Position numbers and translations under genes: made by a program. The notes beneath the pieces are model-generated. The model did no database searches. It was not told where the DNA came from and saw only the letters and a program-made list of their open reading frames with translations. This document shows positions 27,812-43,311 of a stretch of DNA of 64,000 nt, one piece after another; the stretch's first letter is position 1, and every line of letters begins with the position of its first letter. The DNA is from Halogeometricum rufum (GTDB lineage Archaea > Halobacteriota > Halobacteria > Halobacteriales > Haloferacaceae), in NCBI RefSeq assembly GCF_900112175.1, contig NZ_FOYT01000004.1, positions 1 to 64,000 on the forward strand. The letters are read 5' to 3'.

Positions 27812-28573
27812 TCACGACCGTGCCCGCTGGATGTTGATCTCGATCTGGTTGGCGGCTTCGATCATCGTCTGGACTAGCTCGTCGGTGTCCTTCGTCTCGA
27901 ACCGTCCTATCGTCCCGCTGATTCCGATGGACCCGGCGAGAGAGCCGTCGGGGAGTTGCACGTCGGTCGCGTACGTCTGCGCTCCCACCGTTTGTTCCTG
28001 ATAGTTGTTGGCGTACCCACGTTCTCGGACCGTCTCCAACTCCTCGTAGAGTTGTTCGCGGTCGGTTATCGTGTGCGTGGTGAGCGATTCGAGCCCGTGT
28101 TGGTCGATGATCTCCTCGACGCGGTCGTCGGACATCTTCGCGAGGAGCGCCTTTCCGGTGGCCGAGGCGTGCATCGGTAACCGCCCGTTGCTCGGGGTTT
28201 CCTGCTTGAGCGACCCTCGCGAGGAGTACAGCATGTAGACGACGCCGTCGGACTCGACGGCGAGATGCGTCACGTCACCCGTCGCTATCGCCAGTTCGTT
28301 GGCTTCGTTCCGCCCGTGTCTGTATATCGGCTGGCGTTCTCTGATGGAGGATGCCAGGTCGAGTATCTTCAGGTTGAGGTCGTACTCGCCGTCGCTGGAC
28401 TTCCGGATGAAGCCCTCCTCGTTGAGCGTGACCAGGTACGTGTGGACGGTGCCCCTCGTCAACTCCACCTGCTCGGTCACTTCGGCGACCGACGCCCCGC
28501 CTCGCTCTTCGAGAACGGCCATTATCTCCCGCGCGTTCTCGACCGACTGTATCGTTCGGCGGTTCTCGTTCAT
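27812..28573 (-). CDS. IclR-family transcriptional regulator (opine-like locus)
   Basis: A 253-residue IclR protein starting MNENRRTIQSVENAREIMAV. The winged HTH is at about residues 8-65 (SVAEVTEQVELTRGTVHTYL). The effector domain follows (about 80-250), with ATGKALLAKMSDDRVEEII and the LAGSIGISGTIGRF strand. It diverges from a DAO-type oxidase gene at 28800 and is the nearest regulator to the ABC transporter and opine-type enzymes to its right, so it probably controls them. A TATA element about 30 bases upstream gives a leaderless mRNA; a small dyad, TATGAACATA (28609-28618), overlaps this promoter and could be its own operator. Confidence 0.9.
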   Translation of the reverse strand: MNENRRTIQSVENAREIMAVLEERGGASVAEVTEQVELTRGTVHTYLVTLNEEGFIRKSSDGEYDLNLKILDLASSIRERQPIYRHGRNEANELAIATGDVTHLAVESDGVVYMLYSSRGSLKQETPSNGRLPMHASATGKALLAKMSDDRVEEIIDQHGLESLTTHTITDREQLYEELETVRERGYANNYQEQTVGAQTYATDVQLPDGSLAGSIGISGTIGRFETKDTDELVQTMIEAANQIEINIQRARS

Positions 28574-28799: not shown

Positions 28800-29987
28800 G
28801 TGAGTTCGACATACGGAATCATAGGTGGCGGTATAGCGGGTGCGAGTATCGCGTATCACCTCAGCCAGCGGACCGACGACTCCGTCGTCGTCTTCGAGCG
28901 CCAGTCGCCGGCGTCGGAGACGACCTACAAGTCCGTCGCCCAGTACGGATTCTACGGAGACGAGACCCAGTACAGGATGAAGCGCTACGGCATGAAGCTC
29001 TACAACCGCTTCTTCAGAGAGTCTCGCGTGAACCCCCGATACACGTCGATGGGAATCCTGACGGCGGCGACCGAAGCGGACAACGCCGACAGGATGGAAG
29101 AGGCGGTTCGGACGGACGGGGACACCTACTTCGGAAAGATGGGCATGGGGTTCGACAGGGACTTGGTCGAGTACATCGACGGCGACGCGATCAAGGAGAA
29201 ACTGCTCCTGCCGCCGGTCGACGAGGAACCGATCGAGGGAGCGCTGTTCCGACCGAAGGTCGGCTACATGGACCGGCCGCAGGAACTGGCGTACGAGTTC
29301 CTCGAACGCGCGAAGGACAACGGCGTCGACGTGCGTGCGAACACCGCCGTCGAGGAGATAACGACGGACGGGGGCCGGGCGACGGGTCTGGTAACGGAAG
29401 GCGGCGAGGAGGTCGAACTGGACGAGGTCATCTGCGCCGCGGGGCCTTGGAACATCGAACTCGCCGAATCGGTCGGGATCGAACTGCCGGTCAAACACAC
29501 TATCGCTCCGATACTCGTGTTACGGCCCGACGACCAGTCCGACTACACGCTCCCGGCCATCAATCACTTCGAGTCACCCTACACGTTCCACCGTCGGAGT
29601 GAGGACGAGTTCCTCATCGGGTACAATCCGGGCGACGTGTACGAGGACGCGACGGAGTACGACCCGAGGGCGATGGGCGAGACGGTACCCGAGGACATCC
29701 GGGACCGGGGAATCGACCTCCTCCAACGGCTGGTCCCCGACCTCATCGACGCGAAGGTGGTCGAAGAGTGGGTCGGGATTCGGTCCATCACGCCGGACAA
29801 GAACCCGGTCGTCGGCTGGACCGACCTCGAAGGCTTCTCCATCGCGGCCTTCCACACGTCCGGAATCCAACTCGCTCCGGCGGTCGGAAAGATGATCGCA
29901 CAGCAGGTGCTCGACGACGACCCGACGGACTACTACGACGACCTCTCGATAACCCGGTTCGAAGGATACACCGACCACCGCTCGTGA
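28800..29987 (+). CDS. DAO-family FAD-dependent oxidoreductase (paralogue 1)
   Basis: A 395-residue flavoprotein of the D-amino-acid/glycine/sarcosine oxidase family. The GTG start is chosen because the FAD loop YGIIGGGIAGASIAYHL follows at once and a TATA element lies 27 bases upstream. Later family segments are AAGPWNIELAESVGIELPVK, VEEWVGIRSITPDKNPVVGW and AAFHTSGIQLAPAVGKMIAQ. It oxidises a C-N bond of an N-substituted or D-amino acid to an imine; members include sarcosine, proline and opine (octopine/nopaline) oxidase subunits. A close paralogue lies at 39562, on the other side of the transporter genes. Electron acceptor (O2 or a carrier) is unknown. Confidence 0.9.
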   Translation: MSSTYGIIGGGIAGASIAYHLSQRTDDSVVVFERQSPASETTYKSVAQYGFYGDETQYRMKRYGMKLYNRFFRESRVNPRYTSMGILTAATEADNADRMEEAVRTDGDTYFGKMGMGFDRDLVEYIDGDAIKEKLLLPPVDEEPIEGALFRPKVGYMDRPQELAYEFLERAKDNGVDVRANTAVEEITTDGGRATGLVTEGGEEVELDEVICAAGPWNIELAESVGIELPVKHTIAPILVLRPDDQSDYTLPAINHFESPYTFHRRSEDEFLIGYNPGDVYEDATEYDPRAMGETVPEDIRDRGIDLLQRLVPDLIDAKVVEEWVGIRSITPDKNPVVGWTDLEGFSIAAFHTSGIQLAPAVGKMIAQQVLDDDPTDYYDDLSITRFEGYTDHRS

Positions 29988-30185: not shown

Positions 30186-31124
30186 ATGGCATGGAATACT
30201 ATACCAATGAATGTCCTCGGAAAAGAGATCGGTCGTGACCAATCATACCTTATCCGGAACCTGAGCCGCGGATTCAAGGTCATCTGGCGGGACCCGACGT
30301 CGAGATTCGCGTTCCTGTACCTCTCTGCGCTCTTGGTTCTCGCGGTGGTGGGTCAGGAGATCACGCCGTACAGTTACGATCGCGTCTTCTACGCGAGCGA
30401 AGGCGGAATCCTCCGTTCGCAGCCGCCGTCGATAGCCCACCCCCTGGGGACCACCTCGAGCGGGCGTGACGTCCTCTCGCGACTCGTCTACGGCGTCCAG
30501 CCGACGGTGATCACGGGCTTCGTAGGCGGAGCTATCATCATCGGAATCGGGATGACGGTCGGCGTCCTCGCCGGGTACGTCGGCGGATGGGTGGAGTCGA
30601 CGCTCATGCGAATCACCGACTTCGCGTACTCGGTGCCCACGATTCCGTTCGCCATCGTCCTGGTCAGTTTCCTCGAGGTCGGATTCTTCGCCTCTATCAT
30701 CGTCATCGGCCTCATCCTCTGGCGCGGCAACGCTCGCGTGCTGCGGTCGCAGGTGATTCAAATCAAGGAGCGACCGTTCATCCTCGCCGCGAAAGCCACC
30801 GGGTCCAGTCGCATCCGCATCATCGTCAAGCACATCCTCCCCAACATCGCTCCGATGGCGGCGCTGTTCTTCTCGCTGGGCGTCGGATACGCGATACTCG
30901 TCAACGCCGGACTCGCGTTCATCGGGGTCTCGAGTCCGTTCATCCCCTCCTGGGGCGTGATGATTCGGAACGCCTACCAGTCGGGGACGATGGTTCAGGC
31001 GCCGTGGTGGTCGCTCCCACCGGGAATCCTCATCTCACTGACCGTGATGTCGGCGTTCATGATCGGTCGGCAACTCGAAGACAGCGACGAAGACGAGCGG
31101 TCCGTCACGGGGGCTGGTCCGTAA
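30186..31124 (+). CDS. Peptide/opine-type ABC transporter permease (DppC-like)
   Basis: A 312-residue inner-membrane permease, first gene of the transporter operon. One N-terminal membrane segment (FLYLSALLVLAVVGQEI) is followed by a periplasm-side loop with HPLGTTSSGRDVLSRLVYG, the mark of the DppC/OppC subunit. Five more segments follow, with the EAA cytoplasmic loop AAKATGSSRIRIIVKHILPN. It pairs with the DppB-like protein at 33204 to form the channel. Its stop overlaps the next gene's start in TAATG (31122-31126). Confidence 0.92.
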   Translation: MAWNTIPMNVLGKEIGRDQSYLIRNLSRGFKVIWRDPTSRFAFLYLSALLVLAVVGQEITPYSYDRVFYASEGGILRSQPPSIAHPLGTTSSGRDVLSRLVYGVQPTVITGFVGGAIIIGIGMTVGVLAGYVGGWVESTLMRITDFAYSVPTIPFAIVLVSFLEVGFFASIIVIGLILWRGNARVLRSQVIQIKERPFILAAKATGSSRIRIIVKHILPNIAPMAALFFSLGVGYAILVNAGLAFIGVSSPFIPSWGVMIRNAYQSGTMVQAPWWSLPPGILISLTVMSAFMIGRQLEDSDEDERSVTGAGP

Positions 31125-32158
31125 TGTCGAGCGAACCGCTGCTCGAAGTCGAGAATCTGACTATCGAGTACGACACCCGTCAGGGGCCGCTCACGGCCGT
31201 CTCGAACGCCGACTTCACGGTCGAAGACGGGGAGTACTTCGGCCTCGTCGGCGAGTCCGGATGCGGGAAGAGCACGCTCGCGAAGTCCATCATCGGCGGT
31301 CTGGACGACAACGGTCGCATCGCGTCGGGGAAACTGAAGTACAGGGGCGAGGAACTACAGGACCTCGGCGACGCCGAACTCAACGAGAAGGTTCGCTGGA
31401 AGGAGATCGCGTACATCCCGCAGGCGTCGATGAACAGTCTGGACCCGATGCAGCGACTCAGCGAACAGGCGCTCGAGATAGCCAACGTTCACACGGACCT
31501 CTCCGAGGAGGAGGCACTCGCGCAGTTCGAGGAGATGTTCGAGGTGGTCGGACTGCCGGAGAACCGCATCCGCGACTACCCCCACCAGTTCTCCGGGGGG
31601 ATGCAACAGCGCGCTATCATCGCCCTCGCGCTGTTCCTCCAGCCGTCTATCGTCATCGCCGACGAGCCGACGACGGCGCTGGACGTCATCATGCAGGACC
31701 AGATATTCAAGTATCTGGACGAGATCCGCGACTCGACGGAGACCAGCATGATCCTCATCACGCACGACATCAGCCTGGTCTTCGAGTCGTGCGACGAACT
31801 GGCGGTGATGCACGGCGGGCAGATAGCCGAGACCGGTCCGATAACCGACGTGTACGACGACCCGAAACACCCGTACTCGTACCTGCTCCAGCGGGCGTTC
31901 CCGGACATCCGATTCCCCGACCGGGAACTGGAGACCATCGAGGGGACGCCCCCGCAGCAGTTCGGCGACGTGGACTACTGCACGTTCGCGAACCGGTGCC
32001 CGTGGGCCGAGGAGGGCTGTCGCGAGGCAGCGCCCCCACTCGAAGCCAGCGACACGTCGGCCGATGGCCACCGTGCGGCGTGCTTCAGAACGAACGAGAT
32101 ATTCGAGCAAGAGGACCCGGCGGAGAGTCTGGCGGCGATACGAGGTGACCAATCGTGA
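31124..32158 (+). CDS. Peptide/opine-type ABC transporter ATPase (DppD-like)
   Basis: A 344-residue ATPase: Walker A GESGCGKST, signature FSGGMQQR, Walker B IVIADEPTTALD, and the switch His in LITHDIS. The C-terminal oligopeptide-transporter domain holds a Cys cluster (CTFANRCPWAEEGC), the usual iron-sulfur or zinc-like site of DppD/OppD proteins. It energises uptake with the DppF-like partner encoded next; their genes overlap by four bases (GTGA). Confidence 0.94.
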   Translation: MSSEPLLEVENLTIEYDTRQGPLTAVSNADFTVEDGEYFGLVGESGCGKSTLAKSIIGGLDDNGRIASGKLKYRGEELQDLGDAELNEKVRWKEIAYIPQASMNSLDPMQRLSEQALEIANVHTDLSEEEALAQFEEMFEVVGLPENRIRDYPHQFSGGMQQRAIIALALFLQPSIVIADEPTTALDVIMQDQIFKYLDEIRDSTETSMILITHDISLVFESCDELAVMHGGQIAETGPITDVYDDPKHPYSYLLQRAFPDIRFPDRELETIEGTPPQQFGDVDYCTFANRCPWAEEGCREAAPPLEASDTSADGHRAACFRTNEIFEQEDPAESLAAIRGDQS

Positions 32159-33204
32159 ACGACCCACTGATGGAACTGGACGAGATGGAGAAGTATTTCA
32201 GCCGGAGCTCGGGGTTCCTCGATTCGCTCTTCGGCAGCGACGAGTACGTGAAGGCCGTCGACGGCGTCTCGTTCACGCTCGACGAGAACGAGGTCGTCGG
32301 CGTCATCGGCGAGAGCGGGTGCGGGAAGACGACCCTGCTCAAGACGCTGATGGGCCTCCACGACCCCACGGGCGGTGAAATCAGGTACGACGGGACGCCG
32401 CTCTCGTCGTTCGACCGCAGCGAGTGGAAAGCGTTCCGTCGAAACGTGCAGATCATCTTCCAGGACCCGTTCAACTCGATCGATCCGAAGATGTCCGTCC
32501 AGGAGACGCTGAAGGAACCGCTCAAGATCCACGACATGGAGGCGAGCGAGGAGCGGATTCTGGACGTCCTCGAACAGGTGGAGCTGAACCCGGCCAGGAA
32601 CTACCTCAACCGCCTCCCGCAGCAGTTGAGCGGCGGGGAGAAACAACGCGTCTCGATCGCTCGAGCGCTCGTGACCGAACCGGACGTGATTCTGGCCGAC
32701 GAGCCCGTCTCCATGCTGGACGTGTCCACGCAGGCGTCCGTACTCAACCTGCTCTCGGACCTGACGACCGAACTCGGGGTGAGCATGATATACATCTCGC
32801 ACGACCTCTCGACGGTCGGATACGTGTGCGACCAGATCAAGGTGATGTACCTCGGACGAATCGTGGAGTCGGCACCGACGCAGACGCTGCTGGACGACCC
32901 CAAACACCCGTACACCCAGGAACTGGTGTCGGCCGTACCGATACCGGACCCCCATCACCAACGGGACCGAACGTCGATAGAGGGTGCCGTCGCGGACCCG
33001 ATAGGCTTGGGAAGCGGATGCCGGTTCCGCGACCGGTGTCCGGACCGGATGGACATCTGCGAGAAAACCCCGATGAACGTCGAACACGGAGCGGAACGAG
33101 AGGTGGCGTGTCACCTCCACTACGACCACGAACGACGCGTACAGACCGGAGCGGACGGGGCGTCCGCGAATCAGCGAGCCACGGGCACGGAGGGTGACGA
33201 CTGA
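32155..33204 (+). CDS. Peptide/opine-type ABC transporter ATPase (DppF-like)
   Basis: A 349-residue ATPase with GTG start overlapping the upstream gene. It has Walker A GESGCGKTT, signature LSGGEKQRVSIARAL, Walker B VILADEPVSMLD, switch His in YISHDLSTV, and a C-terminal Cys-containing segment GSGCRFRDRCPDRMDIC. An unusual N-terminal insertion (SRSSGFLDSLFGSDEYVKAV) lies before the first ATPase strand, as in other haloarchaeal DppF proteins. Its last codon overlaps the start of the DppB-like permease gene. Confidence 0.93.
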   Translation: MNDPLMELDEMEKYFSRSSGFLDSLFGSDEYVKAVDGVSFTLDENEVVGVIGESGCGKTTLLKTLMGLHDPTGGEIRYDGTPLSSFDRSEWKAFRRNVQIIFQDPFNSIDPKMSVQETLKEPLKIHDMEASEERILDVLEQVELNPARNYLNRLPQQLSGGEKQRVSIARALVTEPDVILADEPVSMLDVSTQASVLNLLSDLTTELGVSMIYISHDLSTVGYVCDQIKVMYLGRIVESAPTQTLLDDPKHPYTQELVSAVPIPDPHHQRDRTSIEGAVADPIGLGSGCRFRDRCPDRMDICEKTPMNVEHGAEREVACHLHYDHERRVQTGADGASANQRATGTEGDD

Positions 33205-34199
33205 TGTCGACCGCACGATACTTCGTCAACCGGACGCTCCAGACGGTCCTGTTGCTGTGGGGGATACTGACGTTCCTGTTCCTCCTGTTCCGCGCGATGC
33301 CCGGCGACCCGGGGACGCTCATGCTGAACTCGGGAGCGAGTCCGGAAGCCGTCGCCGCGGCGCGTGCGCGATGGGGCCTCGACGAACCGATACACATCCA
33401 GTACCTGCAGTACGTGCGGAGTCTGGCGACGTTCAACCTCGGGAACTCGCTGACGAGCGGGGTCCCGGTGTGGGAACTCGTCCGGATGAAGATATTCAAC
33501 ACGTTCATCCTCGTCGGACCGGCGACGGTGGCGTTCTACATCATCGGGTCGATAGTCGGCGCCGTCCTCGGGTCCAAGCGCGGGACCAAACTGGAGAGCT
33601 ACGGCATCATCCCGTTCTTCGTCATGGGGACGATGCCCTCGTTCTTCCTGAGCATCATCCTCGTGGTGGTGTTCGCGATGTACCTCGACCTGTTCCCGAC
33701 GTCCGGGATGTTCTCGGCGGGCTTTCTCGCCCTTCACCCGGAGTGGCCGTGGTGGCGGCCGTACTTCACCCAGGACTTCCTTCACCACTACATCCTGCCG
33801 TTCACGGCGGTGATACTCCGGTACGTGTACTCGCCGCTGCTGGTGATGCGGACGAGCGTGACCGAGGTGATGGGGCAGGACTTCACCTACTACCACCGCA
33901 TCACCGGTCTCCCCTCGAAGAAGCGGCTCAAGCACGTCTCGAAGCACGCGAGTCTGCCGGTCATCACGCTCTTCCCCACGTCGATGCTGCAGGCGGTCAG
34001 CGGTCTCGTGCTGATCGAAGTGGTGTTCAACTGGCCGGGAATCGGCAACCTGCTGGTGCACTCCATTCTGGGACGGGACTACCCGGTCGTTCAGTTCGTC
34101 TTCTTCGCCGCCGCCGTGAGCGTCGTGCTCGGCAACTACGCCGTCGACATCCTGTACGGCGTCATCGACCCGCGGGTCAGCGTGACGGACGACGCTTAG
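33204..34199 (+). CDS. Peptide/opine-type ABC transporter permease (DppB-like)
   Basis: A 331-residue permease with six membrane segments. The N-terminus RYFVNRTLQTVLLLWGILTF and the loop RAMPGDPGT are typical of DppB/OppB. The EAA loop is HRITGLPSKKRLKHVSKHAS, and the last segment includes IEVVFNWPGIGNLLVHSILG. The order C-D-F-B, then the binding protein, is unusual compared with the bacterial A-B-C-D-F order but common in haloarchaea. The 232-base gap to the binding-protein gene contains a separate promoter. Confidence 0.93.
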   Translation: MSTARYFVNRTLQTVLLLWGILTFLFLLFRAMPGDPGTLMLNSGASPEAVAAARARWGLDEPIHIQYLQYVRSLATFNLGNSLTSGVPVWELVRMKIFNTFILVGPATVAFYIIGSIVGAVLGSKRGTKLESYGIIPFFVMGTMPSFFLSIILVVVFAMYLDLFPTSGMFSAGFLALHPEWPWWRPYFTQDFLHHYILPFTAVILRYVYSPLLVMRTSVTEVMGQDFTYYHRITGLPSKKRLKHVSKHASLPVITLFPTSMLQAVSGLVLIEVVFNWPGIGNLLVHSILGRDYPVVQFVFFAAAVSVVLGNYAVDILYGVIDPRVSVTDDA

Positions 34200-34431: not shown

Positions 34432-36234
34432 ATGGGTGAGCATGCCATAGACAGACGGCAGTTTGTGAAGACGATGGGTACTATCGCCGGAGCGACGGCC
34501 GTCGCCGGTTGCAGCGGCGACGACTCGGGTGACGGAACGGGTGACGGCAGCGGTGGAACGGCCAGCGACGGTGAACTCGGCGAGCGGGTTCCGTCGCTGG
34601 CGTGCCCGTACTGGTCGGACGTCGGGCGCGCCCCGACCTGTGAGGAGCAACTCTCCGTCGCCAAGCCCAACGTGGAAAACGCGCTGGGGGTTCAGGTCGA
34701 ACTGCAGCCGAAAGACATCGCGACGACCATCTCCGAGTGGAACAACGACGTTCGGAAGTTCCCCATCGCGTACTGGTACATGGGGAACACCGGCGGGCGA
34801 CTCGACCCGAACCCGATCATGGTCCGTAACATGATCACTCGGGCGGGCGGCGACGGACTGTTGAACTCCTCGCACTACCCCTCGTGTGAGTTCTCGAAAC
34901 TCGCGCACGACCAAGTCTCCGCACCGTCGCTCGACAAGCGGAACGAGATGGTTCGGGAGGGGATCAAGATAATGAGCGAGGACGCCGCCCACATCCCGAC
35001 GACGAACACGCTCAACTTCAACGCCGCAAGGTCGGCCGTGAACACGGAGCGAGTCGGTCAGGCCGGCTACGCGAAGAACAACCCCCGGTTCCACATCTAC
35101 TCGTCGGTCGAAGACAAAGACCAGATGGTGTTCAACGCCGACGGGAACACGATGGCCACGTCCGCGTTCCCGCGGATGGACTCGGACTCCCTGTGGAACC
35201 ACATCGTGACGTCGACGCTGATGGAGTACGACGAGAACTTCGAACTCCAGCAGAACATGGCCGCCAGCCTCGAAACGGCCCGCGAAGGCAAGCGCATCAT
35301 CGTCGAAATCAAGGACGCGACGTTCCACAACGGCGACCCGGTCACCGCGGAGGACGTCCAGTACACGTTCCAGTGGAACCACGAGAACGGCAGCGTGGTG
35401 CCCGACCACACGGCCATCCCCTACGAGGGCGGCGCCGACGGCATCAAGATCGTCGACGACAAGACGGTCGAGTTCAACCTGAAGCAGGCGTACTGGCCGT
35501 TCATCAACAAGAAGCTCCAGAAGCGCGGCATCTACCACAAGCAGTCGTTCGTCGAATCCGGTGCCGACGAGAACCCCTCGAACTTCACGCTGAACGAGAT
35601 CATCGGCTGCGGCCCCTATCAGGTCGTCAACTTCCAGCCCGGACAGTCGGTCACACTCGACCCGTTCCCGGACTGCGCCGCGCACGACCCGCCGAACCAG
35701 CGAAAGGTGTTCCTCGCGTTCGACAGCAAGCAGGGCGCGGCCCAAGGGTTGCAGGCCGGCGAGGTCGACGTCGTGTCACAACTTCCGACGGGACTCTTCG
35801 ACCAGATGAAGCAGGCGGACGGCATTCAGACGAACGTGTTCAGCGGCTTCATGGGCTACCACTTCCACCCGCACCACGGCGTCGCGCCGACCAAGTTCCT
35901 CGAGTTCCGCCGCGCGTGGGGTAAGGCGCTCAACCGAAAGGAGATCAATCAGGTCTCTCAGTCCGGACAGGGCGAACCGCAGTACCACGGCAGCCACTTC
36001 ATCACCACGCACCCCTCCTATCCCGACGACGACAGCGACGTCTACAAGTACACCACCGAACCCACGGGCGAACCCGAGGCGGCAAAGCAGTTACTCGAAG
36101 AGAACGGGTGGGGTTGGGACGACCAGGGGCGACTCCATTACCCGCCCGACGCGGACCTGAGTCCGCTCTGGCCCAAAGAGGGAACGCCGTCCGAGGAAGA
36201 CTTCCCCTGCCTCTCGGAACTCCCCGAAGACTAG
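34432..36234 (+). CDS. ABC transporter substrate-binding lipoprotein (SBP_bac_5 fold), apparently circularly permuted
   Basis: A 600-residue lipoprotein with Tat signal (DRRQFVKTMGTIAGATAVAG, lipobox Cys27) and an acidic Gly linker. In DppA-type proteins the chain begins with the 'dP..s..iye.L' segment and ends with 'r.ely..aq.i...ap.ip'. Here the end comes first. Residues ~55-205 hold CPYWSDVGRAPTCEEQ, VQVELQPKDIATTISEW, DKRNEMVREGIKIMSEDAAH and IPTTNTLN. The usual N-terminal part follows: MATSAFPRMDSDSLWNHIVT, ATFHNGDPVTAEDVQYTFQW, GCGPYQVVNFQPG, EFRRAWGKALNRKEINQV. The C-terminus is EPEAAKQLLEENGWGWDDQG, the point where the first part would normally continue. It binds the solute for the transporter encoded upstream; its stop lies one base before the convergent gene. 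Confidence 0.9.
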   Translation: MGEHAIDRRQFVKTMGTIAGATAVAGCSGDDSGDGTGDGSGGTASDGELGERVPSLACPYWSDVGRAPTCEEQLSVAKPNVENALGVQVELQPKDIATTISEWNNDVRKFPIAYWYMGNTGGRLDPNPIMVRNMITRAGGDGLLNSSHYPSCEFSKLAHDQVSAPSLDKRNEMVREGIKIMSEDAAHIPTTNTLNFNAARSAVNTERVGQAGYAKNNPRFHIYSSVEDKDQMVFNADGNTMATSAFPRMDSDSLWNHIVTSTLMEYDENFELQQNMAASLETAREGKRIIVEIKDATFHNGDPVTAEDVQYTFQWNHENGSVVPDHTAIPYEGGADGIKIVDDKTVEFNLKQAYWPFINKKLQKRGIYHKQSFVESGADENPSNFTLNEIIGCGPYQVVNFQPGQSVTLDPFPDCAAHDPPNQRKVFLAFDSKQGAAQGLQAGEVDVVSQLPTGLFDQMKQADGIQTNVFSGFMGYHFHPHHGVAPTKFLEFRRAWGKALNRKEINQVSQSGQGEPQYHGSHFITTHPSYPDDDSDVYKYTTEPTGEPEAAKQLLEENGWGWDDQGRLHYPPDADLSPLWPKEGTPSEEDFPCLSELPED

Positions 36235-37004: not shown

Positions 37005-37841
37005 TTACTCGACGGCGTCGGTGGTCGAGTCCTTCGGTTGGAGCCGCTCGAGTTGCTCCGCGTCGGTGAACAGGTGCTCGGCGACGAGGAGGCTGCTGCT
37101 CATGCTCGTCAGTCCGCCCGCGGCGAATATCATCGCCATGATGACGAACTGGTAGAGCGCGGCGTACAGCGGGTTCTCGCCGGAGAGTATCATCCCGGTC
37201 ATGATACCCGGAATCCAGACCCACCCGAGGCTCTTGAGCGAATCTATCGTCGGGATGAGCGCCGCTCTGACGCCGGTCTGGATGTGCCGTGTGACGACGG
37301 CCGACGGCGGCGCCCCGAGCGCCAACCCCGCTTCTATCTCGTCGCGGTTCGAGAGAACTTCGCCACGCACGCGGTCGAGTGCGAGCGAGTTGATCTTCAT
37401 CGCGTTGGCGATGACCATGCTCCCGACGGGAACGAGGTCCCGCACGGTCGATTCGATGGCGCCCGTCAGCGTCATCGCCACGATTACCGTCCCCGCACCG
37501 AACGATATCGAGAGGAACGAGACGCGAGTAACCGCCGGGAGGCCGTCACCGCGGTTCTTTGATATCCACGTCGCACCCCCGACCATCCCGAGGAGGATGA
37601 GCCAACTCCAGAAGTACTGCACGCTGAGGAGGACGCCGATGAGCGACCCCATGACGAGGACCTGAACGAACCCTCGGACGAGTGCGACGCTGAACTCCCG
37701 TTCGAGTGCGAGACCGCGGACCCGAGAGACGCCCACTACCACGAGCGCGATTGCGACGGCGGCGGCGACCTGGAGCAGCCCTTTCACGACCGTCGGGTCG
37801 AGACGGGCGAACAGGTCCGCGAGCGGGAAACCACCCGTCAC
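37005..37841 (-). CDS. fetB: FetB-like (UPF0014) ABC permease, probable iron or metal exporter
   Basis: A 278-residue membrane protein with about seven segments and the UPF0014 signature parts FSVALVRGFVQVLVMGSLIG, GAGTVIVAMTLTGAIESTVR, MVIANAMKINSLALDRVRGE, RHIQTGVRAALIPTIDSLKS and IPGIMTGMILSGENPLYAAL. In E. coli FetAB (YbbLM) exports iron and protects against peroxide stress. Start overlaps the stop of the ATPase gene by four bases, so the two form one transporter. It lies inside the opine-like locus without obvious link to it. Confidence 0.88.
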   Translation of the reverse strand: MTGGFPLADLFARLDPTVVKGLLQVAAAVAIALVVVGVSRVRGLALEREFSVALVRGFVQVLVMGSLIGVLLSVQYFWSWLILLGMVGGATWISKNRGDGLPAVTRVSFLSISFGAGTVIVAMTLTGAIESTVRDLVPVGSMVIANAMKINSLALDRVRGEVLSNRDEIEAGLALGAPPSAVVTRHIQTGVRAALIPTIDSLKSLGWVWIPGIMTGMILSGENPLYAALYQFVIMAMIFAAGGLTSMSSSLLVAEHLFTDAEQLERLQPKDSTTDAVE

Positions 37842-38545
37842 GGCGACAGCACCTCGCGAGCGGGTCCGAGGTCGCTGACGGCGCCGTCCTCCAGCGAGAG
37901 CACTCTATCGGCCAGCCGTCGCGCTTGGTCCGGGTCGTGCGTGACGATGACGCACGCGATTCCGAAGTCGGCGACGACTTCCCGTATCAGCGCTTCCACG
38001 TACGCTTCGGTGCCGGCGTCGAGGTTCGAAGTCGGTTCGTCGAGCAGGAACGCGTCCGGGTCGTTCACCAGCGTCCTCGTCAACGCCACTCGCTGGGCTT
38101 CGCCGCCGGAGAGGTCGCCCACGTCCTTCGCCTCGTAGTCGGCGATGTCCAGACGTTCGAGCAACTCGCGCGTGCGTTCCTCGGGGACGGGTTCGTCTCT
38201 GAGCGTCGGGCCCCGAACGACGTTCTCCCAGACCGTCCCCGGGACCAGCGAGGGTTGCTGCGGGACGAGGCCGATGCGCTGTCGGAGCGTTCGCGGGGAG
38301 AGTTCGCGGTAGTCGACGCCCTCGACGTACACCGACCCCGAAGACGGCTCGTCCAGTCGATTCAGTAGCCGCAGGAACGACGACTTCCCCGCTCCCGACG
38401 GCCCCACGACGGCCAGTACCTCACCTCTGGAGACGGTCACAGAGACAGTGTCGACGACGGCGGTTCCGTCGACCAGTCTCGTCAGTCTCTCCGTCTCGAG
38501 GAGTGGCGCGTCCTCCGACTCGGAAGCGTGCGTGTCGTGTTTCAT
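37838..38545 (-). CDS. FetA-like ABC ATPase partner of FetB
   Basis: A 235-residue ATPase: Walker A GPSGAGKSSFLRLLNRLDEP, Q-loop in GLVPQQPSLVPGTVWENV, signature LSGGEAQR, Walker B AFLLDEPTSNLD, and switch His in IVTHDPDQA. The gene is the first of a two-gene unit with fetB (ATGA overlap, 37838-37841). It should energise export of iron or another cation. An upstream gap of about 140 bases to the stress-protein gene must hold the promoter; I saw no iron-box repeat there. Confidence 0.88.
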   Translation of the reverse strand: MKHDTHASESEDAPLLETERLTRLVDGTAVVDTVSVTVSRGEVLAVVGPSGAGKSSFLRLLNRLDEPSSGSVYVEGVDYRELSPRTLRQRIGLVPQQPSLVPGTVWENVVRGPTLRDEPVPEERTRELLERLDIADYEAKDVGDLSGGEAQRVALTRTLVNDPDAFLLDEPTSNLDAGTEAYVEALIREVVADFGIACVIVTHDPDQARRLADRVLSLEDGAVSDLGPAREVLSP

Positions 38546-39367: not shown

Positions 39368-39562
39368 ATGGCACGACGCAACTCCTCAGCGGACGGCTGG
39401 ACAGGCCCCGGTGAGTCGGTCTCTCAGGAGACCGACGACGTACGAGACCGGCTCCCGGGACCGAACGACAGCGAGTCTCCGAACCGGACCTCACCGGTGA
39501 GACGCGACGACCCCGAGGCGGCCTATCGCTCCACGCTCGGAACAGCGGAGGCGGCGACCTGA
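39368..39562 (+). CDS. Small hydrophilic protein coupled to DAO oxidase gene
   Basis: A 64-residue, Ser/Asp/Arg-rich frame from ATG 39368 (MARRNSSADGWTGPGESVSQ) whose TGA overlaps the ATG of the oxidase (TGATG, 39560-39564). A TATA-like stretch, aagatttattcc, lies near 39325. It has no motif, looks disordered and could be a short regulatory or partner peptide. Small subunits coupled to FAD oxidases exist in opine and sarcosine oxidase systems, often with Fe-S sites, but no Cys is present here. It may also be only a translated leader. Confidence 0.5.
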   Translation: MARRNSSADGWTGPGESVSQETDDVRDRLPGPNDSESPNRTSPVRRDDPEAAYRSTLGTAEAAT

Positions 39563-40746
39563 TGACCGCCGAAGGCGGGTATCACGTCGTCGGCGGGGGT
39601 ATCGTCGGTGCCAGCATCGCGTACCACCTCGCTCGGCGAACCGACGAACCGGTCCACGTCTACGAGAAGGGGACGCTGGCGAACGAGACGACGAAGAAGT
39701 CGCTCGCGTTCTTCGGGTTCTACGGCGACGAGACGCAGTACCGCATGAAGCGGTACGGGATGGAACTGTACAACGAGTTCCTGTCGTCGCCGCGCGCCGA
39801 CCCCGGATACGTCACGACCGGGTTACTCGACGTCGCGACGTCGGACGACGGCGCGGAATCGCTCCGGCGAGCGGTCGAAGAGCGAGGCGAGCGACTCGCC
39901 CACGCCGACGCTGACCGGGTCGACACGTCCCCGGTCGACTTCGTCCAACCGGACGAACTGAAGCGGACGGCCGTGCTGCCGTTCCTCGACACCGACGTCG
40001 TTACCGGCGGCGTGTTCCGGCCGCAGGTCGGCTATCTCCGACCGCGAGAGATGGCGCTCGAATTCGTCGACCGGGCGCGGGACGAGGGTGCCGTCTTCCA
40101 CGAGAACGCCACCGTAACGGACCTCTCGGTCGACGACGGCGTCCTCTCCGGCCTCTCCGTCGACGGCGAGGAACGACCGGCGGCGGCGGTCGTCTCGGCC
40201 GCCGGACCGTGGAACCCCCGCGTCGCCGAGATGGCGGGCGTCGAACTCCCCGTCAAACACACGCTCGCTCCGGTCTTGGAACTCGAACCCGACGAAGAGA
40301 TTCCGTACACGCTACCGTGGATAACCCACCACGAGTCCGGATTCTCCATCCGACGGAACGCCGACGGACGCGTGTTGATGACGAACCACCCCCCCGGCGG
40401 ACACGAGGAGGCCACAGAGTACGATCCCGATGAGGTCGGCGACGCCGTCCCCTCGGACCTCCGACAGCGGGGTCTCGAACTGCTCGAATCGCTCCTCCCG
40501 ACCGTCGAGACGTTCGAAGTCGTCGACGAACGGGTCGGAATCCGCTCCTCGACGCCGGACGGTAATCCGGTCGTGGGCTGGACGCGCGTCGACGGCTTCT
40601 CCGTGGCGGCGTTCAGCACGTCGGGCATCCAACTCGCCCCGGCGACGGGGAGCGTAATCGCAGAGCAACTCCTCGACGACGAACCGTCCCAGTTCTACGA
40701 GGGACTCTCGGTCAGTCGCTTCGACGCCTATGTAGACCACAGATAA
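39562..40746 (+). CDS. DAO-family FAD-dependent oxidoreductase (paralogue 2)
   Basis: A 394-residue paralogue of the protein at 28800: VVGGGIVGASIAYHLARRTD, FFGFYGDETQYRMKRYGMEL and VDERVGIRSSTPDGNPVVGW match it almost residue for residue in the FAD and active-site regions. Same predicted role: FAD-dependent C-N oxidation of an N-substituted amino acid. The two may act on related substrates or form one hetero-oligomer, like the A and B subunits of opine oxidases, although both here are of the B (DAO) type. It precedes the opine dehydrogenase and cyclodeaminase genes on the same strand. Confidence 0.9.
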   Translation: MTAEGGYHVVGGGIVGASIAYHLARRTDEPVHVYEKGTLANETTKKSLAFFGFYGDETQYRMKRYGMELYNEFLSSPRADPGYVTTGLLDVATSDDGAESLRRAVEERGERLAHADADRVDTSPVDFVQPDELKRTAVLPFLDTDVVTGGVFRPQVGYLRPREMALEFVDRARDEGAVFHENATVTDLSVDDGVLSGLSVDGEERPAAAVVSAAGPWNPRVAEMAGVELPVKHTLAPVLELEPDEEIPYTLPWITHHESGFSIRRNADGRVLMTNHPPGGHEEATEYDPDEVGDAVPSDLRQRGLELLESLLPTVETFEVVDERVGIRSSTPDGNPVVGWTRVDGFSVAAFSTSGIQLAPATGSVIAEQLLDDEPSQFYEGLSVSRFDAYVDHR

Positions 40747-40803
40747 CACCTCCCCACACAGACCCGACGAGACCATCTTTTGACGGCTATTTGCAAATAT
40801 AGA

Positions 40804-40839
40804 ATTTTATTTCATAAAATCATCCACGAAAAAATTAAG
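40804..40839 (+). promoter_or_regulatory. Inverted repeat and TATA element of opine dehydrogenase gene
   Basis: ATTTTAT-TTC-ATAAAAT (40804-40820) is a perfect inverted repeat with 7-base arms, directly upstream of a TATA-like run gaaaaaattaag (40828-40839), about 30 bases before the ATG at 40864. The repeat is well placed as an activator or repressor site. Confidence 0.5.
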
Positions 40840-40863
40840 GCGGTACACGTCGATGCGTGAGTC

Positions 40864-41976
40864 ATGGGACAACAGATCACGGTCCTCGGCGCGGGCGCGG
40901 GCGGTCTCACCACGACCGCCGACCTGACGATTCAGGGCCACGACGTGACGCTGTTCGAACTTCCGAAGTTCGAGTCGAACCTGGAAGCGATTCGGAGCAA
41001 CGAGGGAATCGACATCACGGGCGCGGCGAACGAGGGCCACGCGCGACCGGCGACCGTCACCTCCGATCCGGCAGAAGCGGTCGAAGACGCCGACCTCGTC
41101 ATCCAGGTCGTCCCGAACTTCGCGTTCGAACCGTTCGCCGAAGCCGTCGGTCCGCACCTCTCCGAGGGACAACCGTTCGTCCTGCTCTCGGCGAACACCA
41201 TGAGCGCACTCGAGTATCGTCAGATTCTCGACGACGTGGGTGCCCCGGAGATTCGTCTCGGCGAGACGCCCTCGCTCGCGTACGCGGTCCGGAAGACCAG
41301 TCCGAGCAGCGTCCACGTCCTGGGAATCAAGCGCGAACTCTCCGTCGCCGGCCTCCCGGCGGAACACTCGTCGGTGCTCGCGGAGCAGATGGACGACGTG
41401 TTCCCCTTCTCCGTCAGTGCGGCGGAGAACGTTCTCGAGACGAGTCTGTTCAACGCGAACCCCGTGATTCATCCCGTCGGGGCCCTGCTGAACGCGGGCG
41501 AAATCGAGTCGCCGGACGACGAGTACTACCTGTACCAGAACGTCACGGACTCGATCGGACGGGTGATGTCGAGGGTCGACGAGGAACGAGCGGAGATCGG
41601 CGAGGCGCTGGGATTGGAGGTGAAGACGGTCGGCGAACTCTTCCACGACTGGTACGGTATCGGGGAGAACGAGTACTACGCGACGACGACGAACTCCCTG
41701 CGTACGAGTTCGATCCACGGGCCGATTCAGGGGCCGGACTCGCTCGACCACCGCTACGTCACCGAGGACGTCCCGTACGGTCTCGTTCCTCTCTCGGAGA
41801 TGGCCGCGGCCTGCGGCGTCGAGACGCCGACCATCGACTCGCTCATCCAACTCGCCGAGGACGTCCACCACACGGACTTCCGCGCCGACGGACGAACGCT
41901 CGACGACTGCGGCATCGACGCCACCGACAGAGACGCACTCCTCCGGGTCGCGACTCGGAGCAACGCCCGCGTCTAG
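40864..41976 (+). CDS. Opine dehydrogenase family (octopine/nopaline dehydrogenase-like)
   Basis: A 370-residue NAD(P)-binding dehydrogenase: Rossmann loop VLGAGAGGLTTTADLTIQGH (GxGxxG at 9-14), then the octopine-dehydrogenase C-terminal domain. The catalytic His lies in FNANPVIHPVGALLNAG, and the substrate-side Asp in TEDVPYGLVPLSEMAAACGV. Family members make or split N-(1-carboxyalkyl) amino acids from an amino acid and a 2-oxo-acid, in either direction. Next to two DAO-type oxidases, a cyclodeaminase-like gene and a peptide/opine transporter, a catabolic or interconverting role on opine-like compounds is reasonable; the actual substrate is unknown. Confidence 0.88.
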   Translation: MGQQITVLGAGAGGLTTTADLTIQGHDVTLFELPKFESNLEAIRSNEGIDITGAANEGHARPATVTSDPAEAVEDADLVIQVVPNFAFEPFAEAVGPHLSEGQPFVLLSANTMSALEYRQILDDVGAPEIRLGETPSLAYAVRKTSPSSVHVLGIKRELSVAGLPAEHSSVLAEQMDDVFPFSVSAAENVLETSLFNANPVIHPVGALLNAGEIESPDDEYYLYQNVTDSIGRVMSRVDEERAEIGEALGLEVKTVGELFHDWYGIGENEYYATTTNSLRTSSIHGPIQGPDSLDHRYVTEDVPYGLVPLSEMAAACGVETPTIDSLIQLAEDVHHTDFRADGRTLDDCGIDATDRDALLRVATRSNARV

Positions 41977-42288
41977 CTTCGCCGAAGCATGTCGATAGCG
42001 TTCGTCGGCGGCGGCGGAAAGACCTGTGGCGCGGAAACGGCCCGGAACCCGGCGGGCGTCGCTCTCCCGACGCGTGTTCGAGGGAACGCGAACGGGGCGA
42101 GAGCCGTCTTCCCGCGGTCGAAGGCGTCACTATCGCGGACGCGGACGCCAGTAGGCGGGACACGGTGAGCGTCGACGGAGTCCCGGCCGTGCGAAGCGGG
42201 TTCCGGCCGGCGACGGACACCGTTCGCCCCGAATCTCGAATCGAGCCGAGTCCGACCATTCCGGACCCCACCACACTAACAGCACACT
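41977..42288. other. Intergenic, 312 bases
   Basis: No gene or clear promoter seen between the opine dehydrogenase and cyclodeaminase genes. The GC content remains high, so it could be an eroded coding stretch, but I find no family sequence. Confidence 0.45.
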
Positions 42289-43311
42289 ATGAGCACGACA
42301 GACGACACGACCGAACGCAGTACCACCCGGACGACTATCGTTTCGAGCCGCGACGTCGAAGCGCATCTCGACATGGGGGACCTCGTCCCCGCGGTCGAAG
42401 CCGCGTTCGCCGCATACGAGAACGGGACGGCGCAGATGCCTCCGAAATCGTACGTCGACCTCCCCCAGTACGACGGCGACTTCCGCTCGATGCCCGCGTA
42501 CCTCGAAACGGACGACTGGCAGGCGGCGGGTATCAAGTGGGTGAACGTCCACCCGGACAATCCGAGCCAGTTCGACTTGCCGACGGTCATGGGGACGCTC
42601 GTGTACACCGACCCACGGAGCGGCTTTCCCCTCGCGGTGATGGACGCGACGACGTTGACGATGAAGCGGACGGGGGCGGCGGCCGCAGTCGCCACCGACC
42701 ACCTCGCCGTCCCGGACGCCTCGACGCTCGGCATCGTCGGTGCCGGCGTCCAGTCGTACTCGCAACTCGAAGCGATCGCCGAGGTCCGGCCCATCGACAC
42801 GGTGGTCGTCAGCGACCCCGACGACGACCGACTCGCCCGGTTCGTCGAGGCGTTCGAGAACGACTTCGACGTACGGACCGGCACGGTGGCGGAGGCGGCG
42901 TCGTGCGACGTGCTCTCGACGGTCACCCCGGTCGAATCACCGATCGTGTCGGTGGACGACCTCGGCGACCACACCCACGTCAACGCGATGGGGGCCGACG
43001 CCGAGGGGAAACAGGAGCTACAGACGGAGGTCGTGCGCGAGGCCACTCTCGTCATCGACGATTTCGAGCAGACGACCCACTCCGGCGAAATCAACGTCCC
43101 CTGGCGCACGGAGAGACTCGACAGACGGGACATCGACGCCGAACTCGGCGAAGTCGTCGACCACGACCCATTCGGCGGCGACGTCCGCGCCGGCGTTACC
43201 GTCTTCGATTCGACCGGATTGGCCATCCAGGACCTCGCCGCCGCCCGCGTCGTCTATCACTCCCTCGACGACGCTGGGAGCGACCTCGAACTGGTCGCCA
43301 CCGGACGGTGA
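42289..43311 (+). CDS. Ornithine cyclodeaminase / mu-crystallin family protein
   Basis: A 340-residue protein of the ornithine cyclodeaminase/alanine dehydrogenase (mu-crystallin) family. Expected parts in order are MPPKSYVDLPQYDGDFRSMP, GIKWVNVHPDNP (substrate-side Lys), MDATTLTMKRTGAAAAVATD (Arg region), and Rossmann loop GIVGAGVQSYSQLEAI. Members convert L-ornithine to proline and NH3 with bound NAD, or reduce ketimines and imino acids. After an opine oxidase or dehydrogenase releases arginine or ornithine, cyclodeamination to proline is the classical next step in octopine use. Ketimine reduction is an equal possibility. Confidence 0.88.
   Translation: MSTTDDTTERSTTRTTIVSSRDVEAHLDMGDLVPAVEAAFAAYENGTAQMPPKSYVDLPQYDGDFRSMPAYLETDDWQAAGIKWVNVHPDNPSQFDLPTVMGTLVYTDPRSGFPLAVMDATTLTMKRTGAAAAVATDHLAVPDASTLGIVGAGVQSYSQLEAIAEVRPIDTVVVSDPDDDRLARFVEAFENDFDVRTGTVAEAASCDVLSTVTPVESPIVSVDDLGDHTHVNAMGADAEGKQELQTEVVREATLVIDDFEQTTHSGEINVPWRTERLDRRDIDAELGEVVDHDPFGGDVRAGVTVFDSTGLAIQDLAAARVVYHSLDDAGSDLELVATGR

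What the first reader, a model, noticed from the sequence alone, without database searches (positions are those of the whole stretch)
34432..36234. Circularly permuted oligopeptide-type substrate-binding protein
Seen: the segments that normally form the last third of a DppA-like protein (up to the '...IMSEDAAHIPTTNT' tail) come directly after the lipobox linker. The normal beginning follows, and the protein ends at '...AAKQLLEENGWGWDDQG', exactly where the moved block would usually start. Known: in SBP_bac_5 proteins the two natural termini lie close together in one lobe, so a cut in the far lobe and a join of the termini is structurally possible. Inference: this is a stable, functional permutation, since length, signal peptide and operon context are intact. 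I know of no described example in this family.
Basis: partly seen in the sequence, partly recalled or inferred. Interest (0 to 1): 0.8.

Follow-up and report, generated by a model that had tools for sequence, protein, structure and literature searches.

The report
Circularly permuted peptide-type binding protein
A salt-loving archaeon's nutrient-uptake protein has its last third moved to its front, and this rearranged order turns out to be an old, widespread and apparently functional form of a common transporter family that I found no earlier description of.

Summary
In the 600-aa lipoprotein at 34432-36234, the C-terminal third of an OppA/DppA-type (SBP_bac_5) protein comes right after the lipobox linker. 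The normal N-terminal two thirds follow and end where that third would normally begin. A profile of 27 relatives matches DppA, AppA and others twice, in reversed order (AppA: i-E 3.7e-65 and 4.8e-14). The moved block alone matches the C-terminal thirds of solved SBP5 structures (fold). It is not a one-off. At least 155 of 391 sampled Halobacteria genomes, in 53 of 86 genera, carry a full-length permuted protein. The window's own genome has a second, 25% identical one, and six alphaproteobacterial plasmids carry it. Low dN/dS (0.09), an intact dpp-type ABC gene cluster and a confident AlphaFold2 model (pLDDT 86.6) support a working binding protein. Natural permutation of binding proteins is known in another class (TpMglB-2, PMC4990184). 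I found none described for SBP_bac_5 in the papers searched. I also found a second permutation of this family, with a different breakpoint. Best filed as a new variant of a known kind; ligand unknown.

The parts
34432..36234 (+). Circularly permuted SBP_bac_5 lipoprotein, 600 aa
   Evidence: ORF; full-length co-linear relatives
34432..34512 (+). Twin-arginine signal peptide with lipobox AVAGC (Cys27 = 34510-34512)
   Evidence: Sequence; RR and AGC invariant in A1; weak Pfam TAT hit below cut-off
34513..34572 (+). Gly/Ser/Asp linker of the mature lipoprotein
   Evidence: Sequence; low pLDDT; variable in relatives
34573..35085 (+). Moved block (aa 48-218): equals the C-terminal third of a normal SBP (about DppA mature 355-497)
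   Evidence: Profile hits to C-terminal thirds; hhalign; fold of the block alone
35086..35202 (+). Junction where the natural C- and N-termini are joined (about aa 219-257)
   Evidence: Between the two reversed hits: 37 profile positions against about 28 residues left over at the two ends of DppA; junction dN/dS 0.081
35194..36135 (+). Normal N-terminal two thirds (aa 255-568), Pfam SBP_bac_5 2-286
36136..36231 (+). Conserved C-terminal tail beyond the new C-terminus (aa 569-600), PPDADLSPLWP...FPC
   Evidence: Alignment A1; dN/dS 0.023
34885..34887 (+). Cys152 of the moved block (SHYPSCEF), candidate disulfide partner
   Evidence: Occurs together with the tail Cys in the window-type clade only; pairing not tested
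36208..36210 (+). Cys593 of the tail (DFPC), candidate disulfide partner
   Evidence: pairing not tested
30186..31124 (+). ABC permease (BPD_transp_1), DppC-like
31136..32158 (+). ABC ATPase with oligo_HPY, DppD-like
32155..33204 (+). ABC ATPase with oligo_HPY, DppF-like
33204..34199 (+). ABC permease (BPD_transp_1 and N-terminal domain), DppB-like
28800..29987 (+). FAD-dependent oxidoreductase (DAO family) upstream of the transporter
27812..28573 (-). IclR-type regulator, divergent from the cluster

Best explanation
The gene encodes the substrate-binding lipoprotein of a dpp/opp-type ABC importer whose chain is circularly permuted. The natural termini are joined by a short linker, and new termini are opened in the loop before the strand that starts the C-terminal third (DppA mature residues 339-355). 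Shown: the reversed order, its conservation, the intact signals and operon, and purifying selection. Inferred: it folds into the usual two-lobed Venus flytrap, captures a small amino-acid-type or peptide-type ligand, and docks on the DppBC-like permease. Because the new N-terminus is in the C-lobe, the lipid anchor is tied to that lobe and not to the N-lobe as in normal relatives. In the window-type clade a conserved tail, perhaps with a Cys152-Cys593 disulfide, may hold the opened site together. The most likely origin is tandem duplication, fusion and loss of the outer parts, once and long ago. The alphaproteobacterial members read here are not lipoproteins by sequence, so membrane anchoring alone does not explain the permutation.
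For: Reversed double hits of the 27-sequence profile on AppA, CtaP and DppA, of Pfam on the paralogue, and of hhalign against normal haloarchaeal proteins. The block alone hits C-terminal thirds by sequence and by fold (all 50 listed rows are SBP5 or related C-terminal regions, Z 8.3 to 6.0). The AF2 model has pLDDT 86.6 and pTM 0.84; model residues 226-574 match chain starts to about 345, Z 22.5. Distribution. Bacterial members with verified order. dN/dS mature 0.09, block 0.073, junction 0.081. Operon. One origin is compatible with the concatenated tree.
Against: No binding, expression or structure data. The model uses only 26 sequences and its coordinates could not be superposed permutation-aware here. 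Single origin has weak support (63), and the N-part tree alone needs two changes. The dipeptide-binding Arg and Asp of DppA (R383, D436, PMC12136057) are not generally conserved in the profile alignment, so the ligand may not be a plain dipeptide. No fused tandem intermediate was found.
Confidence: 0.9

Rival explanations
1. Segment capture, not rotation: an SBP that lost its own C-terminal third gained one from another SBP gene at its front, giving the same topology by a different route.
For: Window-type block and N-part are each too diverged from normal relatives to show a common donor; the authors of the TpMglB-2 paper raised the same possibility for that protein (PMC4990184).
Against: CP1 falls on one side of a branch when both parts are joined. 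In the second permutation (CP2) the moved tail and the core are about equally close to the same normal orthologues (tail 49-65%, core 60-68% for the main clade), so rotation of one gene does happen in this family.
Confidence: 0.12
2. Unrelated N-terminal domain added to a truncated SBP.
For: Single-sequence Pfam finds no family for aa 1-233 above cut-off.
Against: The profile of the block hits C-terminal thirds of solved SBP5s with E down to 3.7e-12; hhalign E 2.3e-17; fold match.
Confidence: 0.01
3. Assembly or rearrangement artefact, or a decaying gene.
For: A lone odd order in one genome could be a misjoin.
Against: Same order in at least 155 of 391 class genomes, including 88% identical Salinigranum salinum; dN/dS 0.09; no stops.
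Confidence: 0.01

Closest known systems
SBP_bac_5 proteins of cluster C (DppA, OppA, AppA, DppE, NikA)
   Same: All sequence segments and, by model, the fold parts; dpp-type ABC operon with BPD_transp_1 permeases and oligo_HPY ATPases; lipoprotein or secreted signal.
   Different: Segment order is C-third then N-two-thirds; anchor on the other lobe; conserved tail at the new C-terminus; DppA R383/D436 ligand pair not generally conserved.
TpMglB-2 (Tp0684) of Treponema pallidum, circularly permuted type I / cluster B glucose-binding lipoprotein (PMC4990184)
   Same: Natural, inherited circular permutation of an ABC substrate-binding protein, found across related species; ligand binding retained there.
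   Different: Different structural class, different breakpoint (first strands of the N-lobe moved to the C-terminus); mostly tethered proteins, whereas permuted SBP_bac_5 also occurs in apparently untethered alphaproteobacterial proteins.
Engineered or split permuted PBPs (for example permuted halves of ribose-binding protein, PMC9815098; known to me here from its abstract only)
   Same: Show that PBP folds tolerate cutting and reordering.
   Different: Artificial constructs, other class.

Membership tests
SBP_bac_5 (PF00496) family | Pfam SBP_bac_5 match above the curated cut-off | tested here: met
   151.1 bits against 32.4, hmm 2-286 of 368
SBP_bac_5 (PF00496) family | Co-linear match over the whole profile (order 1 to 368) | tested here: not met
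   The C-terminal part precedes the N-terminal part; filed therefore as a permuted variant
SBP_bac_5 (PF00496) family | Export signal and ABC importer operon | tested here: met
   RR plus lipobox by sequence; permeases and ATPases with oligo_HPY
SBP_bac_5 (PF00496) family | Type II / cluster C fold | tested here: met
   AF2 model 226-574 to NikZ, AppA, DppA (Z 22.5-20); block alone to C-terminal thirds
Circularly permuted protein | Two homologous blocks in reversed order with little lost at the cut and a join of the natural termini | tested here: met
   DppA 19-339 and 355-497 covered by query 256-560 and 72-219
DppA/OppA equivalogs (NCBIfam) | Score above the equivalog cut-off | tested here: not met
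   Best 82 bits against 650 (Opp4A); DppA 33.9 against 1005
TpMglB-2-like cluster Bc | Type I / cluster B fold with that breakpoint | tested here: inconclusive
   The sequence and fold matches listed are cluster C proteins and the breakpoint differs; no direct comparison with TpMglB-2 was run, so the absence of a cluster B match is not a formal exclusion
Functional binding protein | Ligand binding and transport | not testable with these tools
   Needs experiment

The most novel reading that the evidence does not exclude
SBP_bac_5 chains have been circularly permuted naturally more than once: one ancient event that founded a large archaeal and bacterial clade (the window type), and at least one further, younger event with a different breakpoint, whose topology has changed state at least twice among close orthologues. 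The family would be a natural laboratory of topology switching in which permuted and normal orthologues at 60-68% core identity can be compared directly.
Probability: 0.7. Interest if true: 0.72.

Novelty: new variant of a known kind. Interest (0 to 1): 0.62.

Why it matters
OppA/DppA-type proteins are among the most abundant and best studied transport receptors, and annotation tools call the permuted ones plain 'ABC transporter substrate-binding protein'. Domain searches by normal-order models truncate them. A large natural permuted clade lets one ask whether chain order, and which lobe is anchored to the membrane, matters for ligand closure and docking. It also bears on the suggestion made for TpMglB-2 that permutation is an adaptation to tethering: the alphaproteobacterial members read here have no lipobox by sequence.

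Tried and rejected
Unrelated N-terminal domain: rejected. Misassembly or pseudogene: rejected. A fused tandem SBP as duplication intermediate: eight loci looked at, several with very long open frames; none had a repeated block. Solved permuted SBP5: none of the 60 listed PDB chains spans the junction profile (50 further hits were not shown). A Rhodococcus plasmid hit that looked co-linear in tblastn turned out to have normal order, so single-piece tblastn alone was not counted as proof. Searching a bacterial class with a plasmid locus as centre was not possible, so chromosomal spread in Bacteria is untested. In a sample of 295 genomes of the phylum, only members of the same order matched at 1e-95. 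No tandem repeats in the cluster, and only short, imperfect direct repeats around the gene. Literature: searches gave no permuted SBP_bac_5; only open-access papers are held.

Full report
What is there. The ORF at 34432-36234 (600 aa) starts with a twin-arginine signal and lipobox (MGEHAIDRRQFVKTMGTIAGATAVAGC) and a Gly/Ser/Asp linker. It lies 232 bases downstream of four same-strand genes for two permeases and two ATPases of dpp/opp type. Pfam SBP_bac_5 positions 2-286 of 368 match aa 272-568, and the rest of the model has no place after them.

Test of the permutation. Four independent comparisons agree. (1) A profile of 27 relatives (A2) against all PDB sequences hits normal-order proteins twice in reversed order: AppA 36-346 with query 252-563 (i-E 3.7e-65) and 363-516 with query 68-228 (i-E 4.8e-14); DppA 19-339 with 256-560 and 355-497 with 72-219. 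Only about 15 residues at the cut are unmatched, and the join (37 profile positions) is about as long as what is left over at the two natural ends. (2) The block alone (aa 48-218 plus relatives, A3) hits the C-terminal thirds of solved SBP5s, best DppE 380-499 at 3.7e-12. (3) hhalign against normal-order haloarchaeal SBPs gives the same two blocks, E 1.4e-71 and 2.3e-17. (4) In the second permuted protein of the same genome (G000:C7), Pfam's own model gives hmm 287-365 upstream of hmm 4-288.

Structure. AlphaFold2 with 26 sequences gives pLDDT 86.6 and pTM 0.84. A sequential aligner matches model 226-574 to residue 1 to about 345 of NikZ, AppA, DppA and others (Z up to 22.5). The block folded alone (pLDDT 70, pTM 0.60) matches residues around 350-500 of the same family in all 50 listed rows (Z 8.3 to 6.0; modest Z, but every listed row is this family or its close kin).

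Spread and age. 37 of 170 family genomes have a relative at E <= 1e-40, nearly all full-length and co-linear. Most are 32-39% identical; Salinigranum salinum is 88%. The more diverged own-genome paralogue (25% identical) has its own set in many genera. With the combined profile at E <= 1e-95, at least 155 of 391 Halobacteria genomes and 53 of 86 genera carry one, and the listed places span essentially the whole profile (a lower bound, since three candidates per genome were scored). In 295 genomes drawn from the phylum only the same order matched. On plasmids of Alphaproteobacteria (Roseomonas, Nitratireductor, Maritalea, Ketogulonicigenium, Neorhizobium, Microvirga) the order was checked with separate N and C profiles. 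The three read in full have plain signal peptides by eye and lie in dpp-type operons. A tree of both blocks joined puts all permuted proteins on one side of a branch, but with support of only 63; the N-part alone needs two changes. One ancient origin with transfer between Archaea and Bacteria is thus compatible, not proven. In the window's own genome, two of six SBP_bac_5 proteins are permuted (order of the rest).

Function. Against the 88% identical Salinigranum gene, dN/dS is 0.09 over the mature protein, 0.073 in the moved block, 0.081 across the junction and 0.023 in the tail, so the whole permuted chain is under selection. The window-type clade has a conserved tail ending in FPC and a Cys in the moved block (Cys152, Cys593). 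Both are present in the 32 window-type sequences examined, and neither motif in the 44 other permuted ones. The script's pattern missed the block Cys in three of the 32 (HYPSC in the window protein and its nearest relative, NWANCG in L094); I read those by eye. A disulfide that closes the opened site is an inference. The DppA residues R383 and D436 that hold the dipeptide termini (PMC12136057) are not generally conserved in the alignment. The neighbourhood (IclR regulator, two DAO-family oxidoreductases, an octopine/nopaline-dehydrogenase-like protein and an ornithine-cyclodeaminase-like protein) hints at an amino-acid derivative as ligand; this is a weak inference.

Known and new. A natural circular permutation of an ABC binding protein is known in cluster B: TpMglB-2, where the authors proposed a subclass and suggested a link with tethering (PMC4990184). 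I found no description for SBP_bac_5 / cluster C in the searchable papers, and none of the 60 listed PDB chains is permuted. The window protein is therefore a member of an apparently unrecognised permuted branch of a known family.

Second permutation. While checking relatives I found proteins in which only the last ~50 residues sit at the front (L057/L126 and others). The main clade is 60-68% identical over the core, and 49-65% over the moved tail, to normal-order orthologues. A single origin of this state is rejected when the diverged pair L148/L151 and the outgroup L152 are included (p-AU 7e-7), but not within the main clade alone (p-AU 0.175).

Noticed in passing
L057:749-2395 (G012:C1:2371248-2372894) and L126-L140, L148-L150: A second circular permutation of SBP_bac_5 with a different breakpoint: the last ~50 residues of the normal protein follow the lipobox linker. 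Normal-order orthologues at 60-68% core identity exist (L141-L147), and the trait changed state at least twice on the tree.
   Followed up: partly
G000:C7:7761-9575 (L003): A second, strongly diverged permuted SBP of the window type in the same genome (25% identical), itself 45-87% identical to proteins in many haloarchaeal genera.
   Followed up: yes
window 39562-43311: DAO-family oxidoreductase, octopine/nopaline-dehydrogenase-like protein and ornithine-cyclodeaminase/alanine-dehydrogenase-like protein in a row, possibly a catabolic set served by the transporter.
   Followed up: partly
window 37005-38545 (minus strand): UPF0014 permease with an ABC ATPase (FetAB-like) next to a USP-family protein.
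   Followed up: no
G000:C1:1210100-1211248 (L074, 680 aa): Long, very diverged normal-order SBP_bac_5 with a long end branch in the tree.
   Followed up: no
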